64,000 bases of DNA from Desulfobacca acetoxidans DSM 11109. GTDB taxonomy: Bacteria; Desulfobacterota; Desulfobaccia; Desulfobaccales; Desulfobaccaceae. Positions 963 through 34,927 of the stretch are shown here, piece by piece. The stretch lies in the NCBI RefSeq assembly GCF_000195295.1, contig NC_015388.1:3192001-3256000 (forward strand), read 5' to 3'. Each line of letters begins with the position of its first letter. Within the stretch, counting starts at the first letter, position 1. The notes under the pieces are model-generated. The model ran no database searches, was not told the origin of the DNA, and saw only the letters and a list, made by a program, of their open reading frames with translations. A program made the position numbers and the translations under genes.

Positions 963-1076
963 ATACAAATCCTCATATTCTGAGGAACACAACGAAGCAT
1001 GAAAACAGAACCGTGGCTGCTGCTCACAATAATATTTTTTCTGCTCACCGCCCACTGCCCACTGTTTTTATATAAA
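963..1076 (+). repeat. Dispersed 107-bp element, copy 1
   Basis: Full copy between near-identical 7-bp direct repeats ATACAAA (963-969) and ATATAAA (1070-1076). It shares the core AACACAACGAAGCATG, a GCTGCTCACAATAAT block and the GCTCACCGCCCACTGCCCAC tail with the copies near 13.6, 26.2 and 34.3 kb. The frame starting MKTEPWLLLTI is open through it. It fills the gap between two convergent-free minus-strand genes. Confidence 0.85.
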
Positions 1077-4119: not shown

Positions 4120-4578
4120 ATGTATTCTGGTAGATGGGTTTGGTCGATTTTCCTCGTGCTGGCATTTCTGGCCTTTAGTTCACCAAGCTGGGCCCAGGGA
4201 AAACAATCGCACCAAAGAGACCGGGAAACGTGGGGTTATGAGACAGATAAACACCCTGGAGACCAGCCACCCGGATGGGACAAGGGCAAAAAGACTGGTT
4301 GGCATGGTGATGACCAACCCCCCGGTCAAGAGAAAAAATATCGGCAGAGCCACCATCATAAATCAAGACATGATCGAAAGCAGAGTGATTTCCAGAGACC
4401 GCCTGCTCCTCCCGAAGGTAGCCAGCAGAAAGGTGATTTTCAGAAACCGCCTGCTCCTCCCAAAAATGGCCAGCAGAAAGGTGATTTCCAGAGACTTCCT
4501 GCTCCTCCCAAAAATGGCCAGCAGAAAGGTGATTTCCAGAGACCTCCTGCTCCTCCCGAAGGAGATCGGCAACAGTAA
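4120..4578 (+). CDS. Exported Gln/Pro-rich repeat protein
   Basis: A 152-residue protein with a clear signal peptide (basic start, hydrophobic core, cleavage about after SWAQ, residue 26). The mature part is very hydrophilic: a His/Lys/Asp-rich stretch (HHHKSRHDRK) and then four tandem copies of a 16-residue unit of the form QKGDFQKPPAPPKNGQ. It has no recognisable enzyme domain. The His-rich part could bind metal and the Pro-rich repeats are probably unfolded. The ribosome site AAAGGAG is well placed. A Spy/CpxP-like gene follows on the same strand, so both may belong to an envelope-stress or metal response; this is inference from context only. Confidence 0.8.
   Translation: MYSGRWVWSIFLVLAFLAFSSPSWAQGKQSHQRDRETWGYETDKHPGDQPPGWDKGKKTGWHGDDQPPGQEKKYRQSHHHKSRHDRKQSDFQRPPAPPEGSQQKGDFQKPPAPPKNGQQKGDFQRLPAPPKNGQQKGDFQRPPAPPEGDRQQ
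4381..4569 (+). repeat. Coding tandem repeat, one 45-bp and three 48-bp units
   Basis: Four in-frame units start at 4381, 4426, 4474 and 4522. They differ at a few positions, and each encodes the 15- or 16-residue motif of the exported protein. Unit number is likely to vary between strains through slippage. Confidence 0.85.
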
Positions 4579-13512: not shown

Positions 13513-13555
13513 ATACAAGTTCACATGTTTTCAAGACCACAACGAAGCATGAAAG
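13513..13555 (+). repeat. Dispersed 107-bp element, truncated copy
   Basis: Starts ATACAAGTTCACATGTT and runs through CACAACGAAGCATGAAAG, matching the first 40 bases of copy 2. It breaks off where the palindromic element at 13563-13620 begins, suggesting that element inserted into it. Confidence 0.65.
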
Positions 13556-13562
13556 AATAATT

Positions 13563-13620
13563 GGTGGCATAGGCCTCCTGGCCTGTGCATCAGCGTGCCG
13601 GCTGCAAAGCCTGCACCACC
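13563..13620. repeat. Palindromic GGTGGCACAGGC element
   Basis: Begins GGTGGCATAGG and ends GCCTGCACCACC, with an inner hairpin (AGGCCTCCTGGCCT). It has the same plan as the element at 14714-14769. It is flanked by GAAAGAA and TTCTTTC, an extra outer inverted repeat. Confidence 0.7.
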
Positions 13621-13627
13621 TTCTTTC

Positions 13628-13741
13628 ATACAAGTGCACATGTTCTGCCGAACACAACGAAGCATAAAAACAGAATCGTGGCGGCTGCTCACAATAATGT
13701 TTTTGCTGCTCACGGCTCACGGCTCACTGTTTTTATATAAG
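13628..13741 (+). repeat. Dispersed 107-bp element, copy 2
   Basis: Between ATACAAG (13628-13634) and ATATAAG (13735-13741), a spacing of 107 bases. Contains AACACAACGAAGCAT, GGCGGCTGCTCACAATAATG and two full 7-bp units (GGCTCAC). It is nearly identical to copy 4, which carries two more 7-bp units. Confidence 0.9.
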
Positions 13742-26152: not shown

Positions 26153-26266
26153 ATTATATAAAAACAGTGGGTAGTGGGCGATGAGCAGAAAAAGCATTAT
26201 TGTCAGCAACCGCCACGGTTCTGTTTTCATGCTTCATTGTGATCACCAGAACATGACGATTAATAT
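26153..26266 (-). repeat. Dispersed 107-bp element, copy 3
   Basis: Opposite orientation to copies 1 and 2. Bounded by ATTATAT (26153) and ATTAATAT (to 26266). Contains GTTTTCATGCTTCATTGTG and AGCATTATTGTCAGCAACCG. On the minus strand it reads MKTEPWRLLTIMLFLL. It ends 30 bases before cdsA. Confidence 0.85.
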
Positions 26267-31291: not shown

Positions 31292-32578
31292 ATGTGGAGA
31301 GATCGATTATTACTGCGATGTTGCTTAAGGATCAGTATCGCTTTCGGCCTTATAGGCGGGTGGGTGACTTGGGCTCAGGCCATGCCGGCCCAAGTCATCG
31401 TCATCCGCCACGCGGAGAAGTATCAAACCCGCCACACGGTCCATCTTAGCCCGAAGGGCCGCACCCGAGCTTTGGCGTTAGTCGAACTTTTTCAATCCGA
31501 TCCCCGGGTTTTGGAGTTTGGCCGACCCGCAGGAATCATTGCCCAGAGTCCTACCCCTCAAAAACACTCCCGGCGCTGTTTAGAAACCGTTGAACCTCTG
31601 GCCCAAGCACTGGGCCTGCCAGTGATTACCCAATTCACCTACGGCCAAACTGATACATTGGTACAATGGCTGAAGGAACAGCGGCAATATGACGGTAAAT
31701 CCGTCTTGATTTGTATGCAGCACATGGATGTCGATGAATTGGCCCAGGCATTGGGGGTCCCCGACCTCAGACCCCGCATCTGGCCTCATGAAACCTATGA
31801 CCGCATCTATATTTTTACTTATGCTCCAGAAAACGGCAGATTGCTCTCCTTTCATAATCTACCCCAATATCTGCTGTTCGGCGACTCCTACCAGTCCGTG
31901 GCGGCGCCAAACGCCCGGGATAAGGCCGAGGTGAGCTTCAAACAGGTCTATAGGATAAATCTACCTGACCCCGCGGCCGGCAAAAAAACCCCGGCGCCGC
32001 GCTGGCAATTCTCCTTGGACGCCAAAATTAAGGGCGATTTTTCCAATTTCAATGACGAGACCGTCCCAGTATTACGCCTGGGGGGTTTCTGCTTTGGTTA
32101 TCATCTCACAACCCTGAGCTACTTGAAGAAACATCCCAACGCCGTGGTGAAGATAAATACGACGGCGCGATCCGGTTCCCTGTTATACCGTTACCAAATC
32201 AAGGCCGGGGATGCTGAGCGGCCATATGCCTGGATATCCTTTACCTGGAACGAGCAATGCTTGCGGGTCAGTTTCAAGGCCGACGTGGATGAAGGCAGCA
32301 TTACCCCGGAGATTGACGTTCCCATCATCCTGGAGTCCGGCACGCCGGTGGGGCTGCTCGTTGGCTCCACGCCCTGTGTGGTGGCCTTCGGCCCCAAGAC
32401 GTTTCAAGCCCCCATCGGACTGAATTACCAAGGGATGGCGAAGAAAACCTACCCGCCAGCATCCCCCGGCTTTTACCACGCCACCTTACAGTCCGTGAGC
32501 GGTTTTTTGGTGGAAAAATCCCCAGATCCCGAAATGCTGGAGCAACTGCCATTATCTGGTGAACCTCATGCAAAGTAA
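31292..32578 (+). CDS. Exported histidine-phosphatase-fold protein
   Basis: A 428-residue protein. The ATG at 31292 is chosen because it starts a proper signal peptide ending near WAQA (residue 30); a TTG 21 codons earlier would bury it. The first 190 residues have the histidine phosphatase/phosphoglycerate mutase fold, with RHAEK (R39, H40) and a later QHMD where the second catalytic His lies. The C-terminal 200 residues (LGGFCFGYHLTTLSYLKKH, ISFTWNEQCLRVSF) are beta-rich and unknown to me. It overlaps the start of the broken transporter gene, so they form an operon. Confidence 0.75.
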   Translation: MWRDRLLLRCCLRISIAFGLIGGWVTWAQAMPAQVIVIRHAEKYQTRHTVHLSPKGRTRALALVELFQSDPRVLEFGRPAGIIAQSPTPQKHSRRCLETVEPLAQALGLPVITQFTYGQTDTLVQWLKEQRQYDGKSVLICMQHMDVDELAQALGVPDLRPRIWPHETYDRIYIFTYAPENGRLLSFHNLPQYLLFGDSYQSVAAPNARDKAEVSFKQVYRINLPDPAAGKKTPAPRWQFSLDAKIKGDFSNFNDETVPVLRLGGFCFGYHLTTLSYLKKHPNAVVKINTTARSGSLLYRYQIKAGDAERPYAWISFTWNEQCLRVSFKADVDEGSITPEIDVPIILESGTPVGLLVGSTPCVVAFGPKTFQAPIGLNYQGMAKKTYPPASPGFYHATLQSVSGFLVEKSPDPEMLEQLPLSGEPHAK

Positions 32579-34927
32579 TCCAATAGCCGTAGGGTTGTAT
32601 GCTTTGTGGTTCCGTTTGACCAAAATCAGCCTGTCCTCTTACATTATTTTCAGCCTTATCCTAGGAATAGTGGTCGGCCTGTTTTTTGGGGAAATTGTCC
32701 TCCCGCTAAACTTCATCGGCAAGGCCTTTATCCAATTGCTGCAGATGGCTGTACTGCCCTATATTGTAATCTCCCTGATCCATGGGTTGGGCAGACTTAC
32801 CAAATCCGACGCCCAGCTTATCGCCACTAAGGGGATCAAATTGTTCCTGTTCCTTATGGACGGTGGGTCTGGTAGTTATCTTTGTCTTCCCCTTGTCCTT
32901 TCCCCATGTAGAGACCTCCGTTTTTTTCAGTGAAGCGGATGTCATGCCACCCAAAAAAGTAGATTTCCTCCAGATCTATATTCCTGCCAACATCTTTGAA
33001 GCTCTGGCTCATGGAACCATTCCGGCCATCGTGGTCTTCAGTGTCTTCCTCGGCTTTGCCCTTAATAGCATCGATAAGAAAGAGACGTTTCTAAACGTGT
33101 TCTCCATCTTGGCCCAGGCCCTGTCCCGGGTCACCCAAATGATCATTAAGATCGCCCCGTTGGGCGTCTTTGCCCTAGCCGCAGTGGCGACCGGCACCCT
33201 AACCATCGAAGAGTTGCAGCGGCTTCAGGTATATTTTGTGTGTTATATCTTCCTGGCATTGCTCTTCACTTTTGCCATCTTACCTGCCATCATTATGTGC
33301 TTTACCAATTTCACCTACCGGGAGATCATCAATTGTTCCAAAGATGCCCTTATCCTGGGTTTTGCCACCGGCAACAATTTTGTGATCCTGCCCTTGATAT
33401 CGAGCAAGTCAATAGAGTTATTGCAAAAATACAGTACAGAGAAGACCTCTCAGGAGCCCCAAAAAACCTCCAGCATCATAGATTCGGTGTTGCCCCTGGC
33501 ATACTGTTTCCCTAGCATAGGACGGCTTTTGGACCTTTTCTTTATCGTCTTCGTAGCCTGGTCAGTGAACCAACCTATAGGTTTATTGCAACATCTTGAT
33601 CTCTCCGTGGCAGGCATTTTGAGCCTATTCGGCTCCCCTAAAATTGCAGTGCCGTTCTTATTGGATTATCTGAAAATGCCCGGCTCCTATTTTGACCTCT
33701 ATATTATTTCCGATGTCTTCACCCGGAAATTCAAAGTCCTGGTCCAGGCTATGAGTTTTTTGACCGTGACTTTGATTTTGACCTCCCTGATAACCTATAA
33801 GTTTACCTTTAACTTCAAGAAAATCCTGACGGCCCTGCTTGCCAACGTGCTTCTGACAACCATCTGCCTGGCTGTGGCCACTGTGGGCTTGGGATATGTC
33901 GTGAGGAATGTCTATCATGAGGATGTAGTGCTATTAAGCATGGAAATCCCCGACGCAGTTCCAGCGACAGTTTTGCGCTCTCCCCCGGTCCTGGAGCCGG
34001 GGCAGCCTCCCCTCGGCACCGAGGCCGAAGATATTTTGCCCCGCATCAAACAACGCGGGGTCTTAAAGGTGGGCTATAATGCCGAAGCTCTGCCTTTTGG
34101 GTTTTTCAACCAGAGAGGCGAACTGGTAGGCTACGATATCTTCTTTGCCCACCAATTAGCTCGAGATCTAAAGGTCACCCTTGAGTTTATCCCAGTTGAT
34201 GATAAAAGCATGAGCCGCTATCTCGAAAGGGGAATATGCGATATTGTCATGTCCGCGGTCCCTATCACCGCAGAGAATTTGGGGAGTATAGACTTCACAG
34301 ACCCTTGTATAAAAACAGTGAGCCGTGAGCCGTGAGCCGTGAGCCGTGAGCAGCAAAAACATTATTGTGAGCAGCCGCCACGATTCTGTTTTCATGCTTC
34401 GTTGTGTTCGGCAGAACATGTGCACTTATATGGATATGAACGCAGCCTTCATCGTCCTGGATTACCGCAAGAAAGATTTTCACCAACGAGAAACCATCAG
34501 AAAAATTCCTCAATTGAAGATTGCTGTGACTCCGGCCAACACCCAAGTCGAGAGACTTAAGATAAAAAAATATTTCCCCCAGGCCCAACTGGTTGAACTG
34601 GCTTCTATCAAAGATTTTTTCACCCAGGCCAATGTTGCCGACGCCTTATTGACCACTGATAAAATCGGCAAAGCCTGGGCTTTACTGGACCCGAAATTCG
34701 GAGTGGCTACGCCCCAGCCCCTGATGTTTCGTTACGATCTGGCCTATCCCGTGGCCATCACCAAAGGTGATTACGAGTTCTTGTCATACCTCAACCAATG
34801 GATCCGCCTTCAAAAAACCAGCGGCGCAGCCCAGGAACAATTTTCCTATTGGATTTTGGGAAAAACCCCTTTACGTCAAACCCGCCGCTGGTCCATTATC
34901 CGCAATGTTCTCCACTGGGTTAAATGA
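32568..34927 (+). pseudogene. Dicarboxylate/amino-acid:cation symporter fused to solute-binding domain, disrupted
   Basis: One gene split over three frames. Part 1 (to about 32856) holds the first spans. A single extra base near 32850-32858 moves the frame; part 2 (to 34335) carries the rest of a DctA/GltP-like symporter and the start of a periplasmic solute-binding domain of the SBP_bac_3 type (GVLKVGYNAEALPFGFFNQ). At 34304-34424 a 121-base repeat is inserted; part 3 (to 34927) is the rest of that domain. Removing the insert rejoins codons as TDP-YMDMNAAF. The intact fusion would be about 745 residues, likely for transport of a dicarboxylate or acidic amino acid. The frameshift could be a sequencing error, but the insertion is not. 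Confidence 0.88.
34304..34431 (-). repeat. Dispersed element, copy 4 (121 bp, inside a gene)
   Basis: Lies between CTTGTAT (34304-34310) and CTTATAT (34425-34431). Reverse complement of copy 2 with two additional 7-bp units (GTGAGCC about four times instead of two). It interrupts the solute-binding domain of the transporter gene; excision of 121 bases restores the frame. Confidence 0.92.

What the first reader, a model, noticed from the sequence alone, without database searches (positions are those of the whole stretch)
34304..34431. A 121-bp repeat has inserted into a transporter gene
The insert lies between CTTGTAT and CTTATAT. Deleting exactly 121 bases rejoins the solute-binding domain in frame (P-Y-M-D-M). 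This shows that a non-coding, transposase-free element moved in the recent past, apparently with a 6-7-bp target duplication.
Basis: seen in the sequence. Interest (0 to 1): 0.78.

Follow-up and report, generated by a model that had tools for sequence, protein, structure and literature searches.

The report
Miniature partners of an RNA-guided transposon
The 121-base insert in this broken transporter gene is one of at least 140 copies of a tiny mobile DNA element that has the ends, but not the gene, of an IS110-type jumping gene (one that finds its target with a guide RNA); the same kind of element occurs in at least five bacterial phyla.

Summary
The insertion is real. Deleting window 34304-34424 (121 bp) restores an SDF/SBP_bac_3 transporter reading frame across the site. 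The insert is one of at least 140 units at 80 sites in this genome (length identical to Desulfobacca acetoxidans ASRB2T), single or in head-to-tail arrays of 2-5. Each unit has a covarying 5-bp hairpin, the box CAACGAAGC, a subterminal inverted repeat around variable, often microsatellite, cargo, and the end ATAYAAG. The same architecture occurs in Desulfobacterota, Cyanobacteria, Omnitrophota, Acidobacteria and Chloroflexota.

The claimed 6-7-bp target duplication is not supported. Left flanks match their own site's right end no better than other sites' ends (p = 0.11). They follow a target motif, YATAYAA(G/A), which resembles the element's own end.

The autonomous partners are IS110-family DEDD transposons. 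Eleven identical-scoring copies in Desulfonema magnum and elements in three other genomes, one of the same genus, carry the same ends. Their non-coding regions contain a guide-like segment matching their own target flank (8/8, 8/8, 8/8, 8/9). Best reading: miniature, trans-mobilised IS110 derivatives; arrays form where the guide matches the element's own end. No IS110 transposase was found in this genome.

Miniature elements and RNA-guided IS110 are both known; this combination was not found in the papers searched.

The parts
34304..34424 (-). The inserted miniature unit (121 bp), A type: left tip at 34424, right tip at 34304
   Evidence: Deletion restores the frame; 92 genome matches
34425..34431 (-). 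Target-side flank ATATAAG (CTTATAT on +): target motif left of the unit, not a copied duplication
   Evidence: Left-flank consensus and site-by-site test
34405..34418 (-). Left-end hairpin TGTTC-TGCC-GAACA
   Evidence: Covariation across genomes; appears in the single-strand fold
34396..34404 (-). Conserved unpaired box CAACGAAGC
   Evidence: Conserved across phyla; related segment in the partners' non-coding regions
34386..34395 (-). Left subterminal inverted repeat ATGAAAACAG
   Evidence: Pairs with the right copy; 54 of 72 own units have ACAG/CTGT pairing
34319..34385 (-). Cargo, A type, ending in a (GCTCACG)n 7-bp microsatellite
   Evidence: Interchangeable with other cargo types
34309..34318 (-). 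Right subterminal inverted repeat CTGTTTTTAT
34304..34308 (-). Right tip ACAAG of the unit (with the two preceding bases, ATACAAG)
   Evidence: Near-constant among young copies
32559..34927 (+). Interrupted host gene: SDF symporter fused to SBP_bac_3; frameshift between the SDF segments plus this insertion
970..1076 (+). Another single unit in the window (A-like)
13520..13634 (+). First unit (B type) of a two-unit array
13635..13741 (+). Second unit (A type) of the array; the array sits in a filled copy of the R2 repeat
26153..26259 (-). Another single, older unit (A-like)

Best explanation
The insert is a miniature, non-autonomous derivative of an IS110-family transposon, the family whose DEDD transposase uses a non-coding seekRNA (bridge RNA) to choose its target. 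The unit keeps only what the machinery seems to need at the ends: a short left-end hairpin, the CAACGAAGC box, a subterminal inverted repeat and the tip ATAYAAG. Transposase and guide RNA came in trans from a full-length relative that was not found in this genome. Shown: unit anatomy, copy number, insertion without a copied target duplication, ends shared with real IS110 elements in other genomes, and guide-like matches in those elements. Inferred: that an RNA is made from that region; that a circular unit is integrated 3' of a TATAA(G/A)-like target; and that arrays arise because the guided target resembles the element's own right end, so that units insert next to units.
For: Same ends on IS110 elements: 11 copies in D. 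magnum with the hairpin, box and subterminal repeat, plus G001 of the same genus, CG2_30_51_40 and an Acidobacterium; transposases match PF01548, PF02371 and NF033542. Full IS and miniature units sit in the same arrays in D. magnum. G006, same family, has an almost identical left end followed by a ribosome-binding site and start codon at a contig end. Non-coding regions match the element's own left flank 8/8, 8/8, 8/8 and 8/9 (shuffle p 0.004, 0.006, 0.033, 0.028), with a box-like segment 22-26 nt further on. In CG2_30_51_40 25 of 33 unit flanks contain CTAAC, as that genome's guide GAACTAAC predicts. Array share fits self-targeting: D. magnum 23/27 (guide = own end), CG2_30_51_40 2/33 (guide differs). 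The hairpin arrives with the unit: empty R2 sites lack it. A mini-IS with 84 + 71 bp of ends moves when transposase and seekRNA are given in trans (PMC11187229).
Against: No IS110 transposase in this genome, so the actual partner is not seen; G181 also has many units and no IS110 hit, though that assembly is fragmentary. Only four partner elements carry the guide evidence, and the single tests are modest. A guide for the TATAAG target was not found in the roughly 0.43 Mb of this genome that was read. Published IS110/IS1111 ends are not described with such a hairpin in the text read. Covariation of the second stem is weak beyond its conserved core.
Confidence: 0.82

Rival explanations
1. The units are independent palindromic elements that IS110 transposons merely use as insertion targets, as IS1111 uses QMITE2 in Coxiella burnetii.
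For: IS110/IS1111 elements often target repeats, and QMITE2 is a known case (PMC5896051). The partners' non-coding regions also contain a segment like the unit's box.
Against: The D. magnum IS copies have one constant left end while neighbouring miniature units vary. After the right end of the IS, host sequence follows with no remainder of a unit. Units without any IS have the same two ends. Empty R2 sites contain no hairpin, and frame restoration here needs removal of hairpin and box as well.
Confidence: 0.08
2. The units are REP-like or IS200/IS605-like elements moved as single strands by a Y1 (RAYT) transposase.
For: Hairpin-bearing, numerous, mostly intergenic; three Y1_Tnp genes are in this genome.
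Against: None of these genes is flanked by the unit, nor are nearly all Y1 genes of six relatives and G181 (one G181 locus has a unit nearby). No reversal of orientation between chromosome halves (25+/26- and 19+/10-). The matching ends are on IS110 elements instead.
Confidence: 0.05
3. A conventional DDE-type miniature element with a 6-7-bp target duplication.
For: Similar 7-mers CTTGTAT and CTTATAT flank the insert here.
Against: Left and right 7-mers do not correspond site by site (p = 0.11); the inverted repeats are subterminal, not at the tips; the right 7-mer is near-constant in young copies.
Confidence: 0.03

Closest known systems
IS110 family insertion sequences with bridge RNA / seekRNA (PMC11208160, PMC11187229)
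   Same: Ends of the unit equal the ends of IS110-family elements with DEDD transposase (PF01548, PF02371, NF033542) and a non-coding region holding matches to the target flank.
   Different: The unit has neither transposase nor guide; a left-end hairpin and CAACNAA box of this kind were not found described in the text read; arrays by self-targeting not found described.
IS1111 group
   Different: Transposase about 419 aa instead of 330-350; repeats 8-10 bp instead of 11-13; left extension about 29 bp with a hairpin instead of 7 bp.
Coxiella burnetii QMITE2 (PMC5896051)
   Same: Miniature repeated element connected with an IS110-superfamily IS.
   Different: QMITE2 is the target of IS1111 and has 7-11-nt direct repeats; the present units are derivatives of the IS itself and show no copied duplication.
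BOX, Correia and ERIC type bacterial repeats (from memory)
   Same: Many short, modular, mostly intergenic repeats with hairpins.
   Different: No sequence relation tested; mobiliser different or unknown.
REP elements and RAYT transposases (PMC2817692, listed, not read)
   Same: Abundant hairpin-bearing intergenic repeats.
   Different: Different ends; RAYT genes here are not flanked by the unit.

Membership tests
Miniature non-autonomous element (MITE-like) | Short, multi-copy, no transposase gene | tested here: met
   100-121 bp in most cases, 140 units at 80 sites parsed
Miniature non-autonomous element (MITE-like) | Shares both ends with an autonomous element | tested here: met
   IS110 elements in D. 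magnum, G001, CG2_30_51_40 and an Acidobacterium; none in the same genome
Miniature non-autonomous element (MITE-like) | Inserted into previously empty sites | tested here: met
   Transporter frame and paralogous empty R2 site; no true allelic empty site available
Miniature non-autonomous element (MITE-like) | Terminal inverted repeats at the tips with a target duplication | tested here: not met
   Repeats are subterminal; no site-by-site duplication. This is as expected for IS110-type elements
IS110 family (partner elements) | DEDD transposase with PF01548 and PF02371 | tested here: met
   for the partners; absent from the window's genome
IS110 family (partner elements) | Non-coding region with guide segments matching the target | tested here: met
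   Four elements, 8/8, 8/8, 8/8, 8/9; by sequence only, transcription not shown
IS110 family (partner elements) | Circular intermediate | not testable with these tools
   Needs an experiment
IS1111 group | Subterminal inverted repeats of 11-13 bp with 7-bp left and short right extension | tested here: not met
   8-10 bp repeats, left extension about 29 bp with hairpin; definition from PMC11187229
IS1111 group | Transposase of 330-350 aa | tested here: not met
   About 419 aa
IS1111 group | Non-coding region downstream of the transposase gene | tested here: inconclusive
   Downstream in three partners, upstream in the Acidobacterium
REP / RAYT, IS200/IS605 | Y1 transposase gene flanked by the same ends | tested here: not met
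Rfam families | Match at gathering score | tested here: not met
   No match in the window; five further loci searched by E-value gave only matches below gathering score
Integron attC cassette | Core sites GTTRRRY / RYYYAAC and a neighbouring integrase | not tested
   Looked at by eye only; not apparent, and sites are scattered over the genome

The most novel reading that the evidence does not exclude
A cross-phylum class of miniature parasites of RNA-guided IS110 transposons: gene-less and guide-less units recognised through a left-end hairpin and a CAACNAA box that the guide-bearing region also contains, building tandem arrays wherever the guide happens to match the element's own end, with a slot for interchangeable cargo. 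It would show a natural RNA-guided system that turns on itself and outlives its own transposase.
Probability: 0.5. Interest if true: 0.75.

Novelty: new variant of a known kind. Interest (0 to 1): 0.62.

Why it matters
IS110 recombinases are studied as programmable tools for DNA insertion. These units show which end sequences nature retains when transposase and guide are supplied by others (down to about 55 bp), and they give many natural guide-target pairs in which the guide logic can be checked. They also explain a kind of abundant bacterial repeat with no Rfam match, and suggest why it forms arrays in some genomes and not in others.

Tried and rejected
Rfam: no match in the window. IS91-type Y2 transposase (PF04986): no hit, but the control genomes did not ring either, so this is weak. 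Y1/RAYT transposases: three genes here, none flanked by the unit. Integron attC-like cassettes were considered from the tandem layout and dropped, by eye only: the attC core-site sequences were not apparent and sites are scattered. Chromosome-half orientation bias: none clear. Folding the whole unit as single-stranded DNA: no more stable than shuffles (z = -0.01), so the hairpin claim rests on covariation. Covariation of the second stem beyond its conserved core: weak. Empty allele of the transporter in relatives: no orthologue. Relatives of the partner transposase in IMG/VR: 18 loci, none with the hairpin/box end. The closest plasmid hits are 37-42% identical and were not examined further. 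Guide RNA in the parts of this genome that were read: none.

Full report
OBSERVATION. Removing 34304-34424, exactly 121 bp, joins one frame of 675 codons that matches PF00375 (SDF symporter) and then PF00497 (SBP_bac_3) across the junction with 73.8 bits; the left part alone gives 54 bits and ends at profile position 83, the right part alone gives nothing. The gene has a second lesion: its first SDF segment lies in another frame (32559-32933). The transporter has no close orthologue in 29 genomes of the class, only two weak partial matches, so an empty allele could not be shown.

THE REPEAT. The window lies in a 3,282,536-bp single-contig genome; this is exactly the published length of Desulfobacca acetoxidans ASRB2T (PMC3156406). 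The insert has 92 matches in that genome, and its core CATGTTCTNNNGAACACAACGAAGCATRAAA occurs 142 times with up to three mismatches, against none for the reversed control. From stretches read around the copies, 140 units at 80 sites were parsed: 44 single and 36 arrays of two to five. Units are modular: a constant left end, a variable interior of several types, and a constant right end. Interiors are enclosed by ATRAAAACAG..CTGTTTTTAT or by other pairs such as ATGAAAGAA..TTCTTTCAT and ATGAGAATGCC..GGCATTCTCAT. Of 63 sites with both ends recognised, only the present one restores a frame with at least 80 codons on both sides on excision, so this gene interruption is unusual.

NO TARGET DUPLICATION. 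If the flanking 7-mers were a copied target, left and right would agree site by site. They do not: 4.76 of 7 within sites, 4.65 between sites, permutation p = 0.11. The right 7-mer is ATATAAG or ATACAAG in young copies because it is the end of the unit; the left one follows a looser consensus YATAYAA(G/A) with exceptions such as CCAAAAG, AAACTAG and CAACGAG; nothing is conserved to the right. A second repeat family provides empty paralogous sites: AATACAAG|ATTCGCCCC at window 3853 and related copies, against the filled AATACAAG|[two units ending ATATAAG]|ATTTGCCCC at window 13500. The empty sites have no hairpin, so the hairpin arrives with the unit.

RELATIVES. Pattern searches found single copies in related genomes G001 and G006 and 35 copies in the distant same-phylum genome G181. 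Single copies in metagenome bins could be binning errors; the Desulfobacterota, Calothrix and Omnitrophota bins have many. The shortest units are about 55 bp (L210, L211). The left-end stem covaries: in 196 units found by the box and downstream sequence, 121 have a perfect 5-bp stem against 27 after shuffling arms (max 41); on 34 distinct ends, 90% of cells pair against 78% shuffled, with 22 double changes against 8 (0/500 shuffles reach this). Part of these units were first fetched with a pattern requiring the innermost C-G pair, so the two freely varying positions carry the evidence. Whole-unit folding energy is unremarkable.

THE PARTNER. Testing IS110 (PF01548) in genomes that carry units showed 11 identical-scoring copies in Desulfonema magnum. 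They have left end TCCCATGTCCTGCGGACACAACAAAGGATGAAACT, right end AGTTTCATATAAA(C), repeat length 1763 bp, and stand in the same arrays as miniature units, partly as tandem IS copies. The same arrangement of hairpin, box and subterminal repeat upstream of an IS110 transposase gene is in G001 of the window's own genus (L317), in Desulfobacteraceae CG2_30_51_40 (L318) and in an Acidobacterium (L316). A contig end in G006, of the same family, has a left end almost identical to the present unit followed by a ribosome-binding site and start codon. The three transposases tested are about 419 aa and match PF01548, PF02371 and NF033542. Neither PF01548 nor a transposase query finds any IS110 in this genome or in G181.

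GUIDES. IS110/IS1111 elements choose targets by a non-coding RNA that contains short matches to the target (PMC11187229; PMC11208160). In four partner elements the non-coding region contains the element's own left flank: TGAGTAAC (8/8), GAACTAAC (8/8), ATATAAAC (8/8), CAGGTTCAG (8/9), with shuffle p of 0.004, 0.006, 0.033 and 0.028. In each case it is followed after 22-26 nt by a CAACNAA-like segment, and in three a second segment resembles the right end. These flanks were chosen after looking, so the p values are indicative. In CG2_30_51_40, 25 of 33 unit flanks contain CTAAC as that guide predicts. Where guide and right end agree (D. magnum, ATATAAAC), 23 of 27 units are array-internal; where they differ (CG2_30_51_40), 2 of 33 are. 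In the present genome flank and right end are alike and 44% of units are array-internal.

MECHANISM. Shown: a gene-less unit with IS110-type ends inserted 3' of a TATAA(G/A)-like motif without a copied duplication. Inferred: transposase and seekRNA acted in trans and are now gone or were never resident; a circular unit was integrated; arrays come from the guide matching the unit's own end. Published work shows that a mini-IS with 84 and 71 bp of ends moves when transposase and seekRNA are supplied in trans (PMC11187229), which makes this plausible. The role of the hairpin is not known; it may bring the box next to the tip.

COMPARISON AND NOVELTY. The partners belong to the IS110 family. They share subterminal repeats and, in three of four, a downstream non-coding region with IS1111, but fail its transposase length, repeat length and left-extension features (definitions from PMC11187229). 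Coxiella QMITE2 differs because it is the target of IS1111. Searches of the held open-access papers found no description of IS110-derived miniature elements or of such arrays; subscription papers and preprints were not searched. Hence: a new variant of a known kind.

Noticed in passing
window 34319-34385; L031-L070; L144-L173; L194-L256; L320-L343: Cargo inside the units is often a 7- or 8-bp microsatellite whose motif differs by genome (GCTCACG, TTACCTC, GGCGTAGA here; AACGGAC and CTGACCC in G181; TAACACC in D. magnum; GCGTCCCC in cyanobacteria). The IS110 story does not explain this.
   Followed up: no
window 3853, 17471, 36021 (empty) and 13500 (filled): A second dispersed repeat, TTGTTTGGGGCGAATACAAGATTCGCCCCTAC, serves as a landing site for the units.
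   Followed up: partly
L110 (genome position about 2,762,000): A RAYT (Y1_Tnp) gene flanked by repeated blocks with CATAGGGCGGCCCGCGGCCGCCG palindromes; a close variant of that palindrome forms the E segments attached to older units (e.g. L043, L045, L120).
   Followed up: no
window 32559-32933 and 32782-34335: The transporter gene has a frameshift between its first and second SDF segments, independent of the insertion.
   Followed up: partly
window 4385-4560: Three tandem copies of a 48-bp repeat, likely within a coding region.
   Followed up: no
L325, L331, L332 (D. magnum, about 2,179,000-2,183,500): Three full IS110 copies stand head to tail with an exact 1763-bp period.
   Followed up: partly
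L293 (IMGVR_UViG_3300035527_000048, end of contig): A viral contig ends in the same left end followed by a ribosome-binding site and ATG, probably an IS110 of this subgroup carried by a phage or prophage.
   Followed up: no
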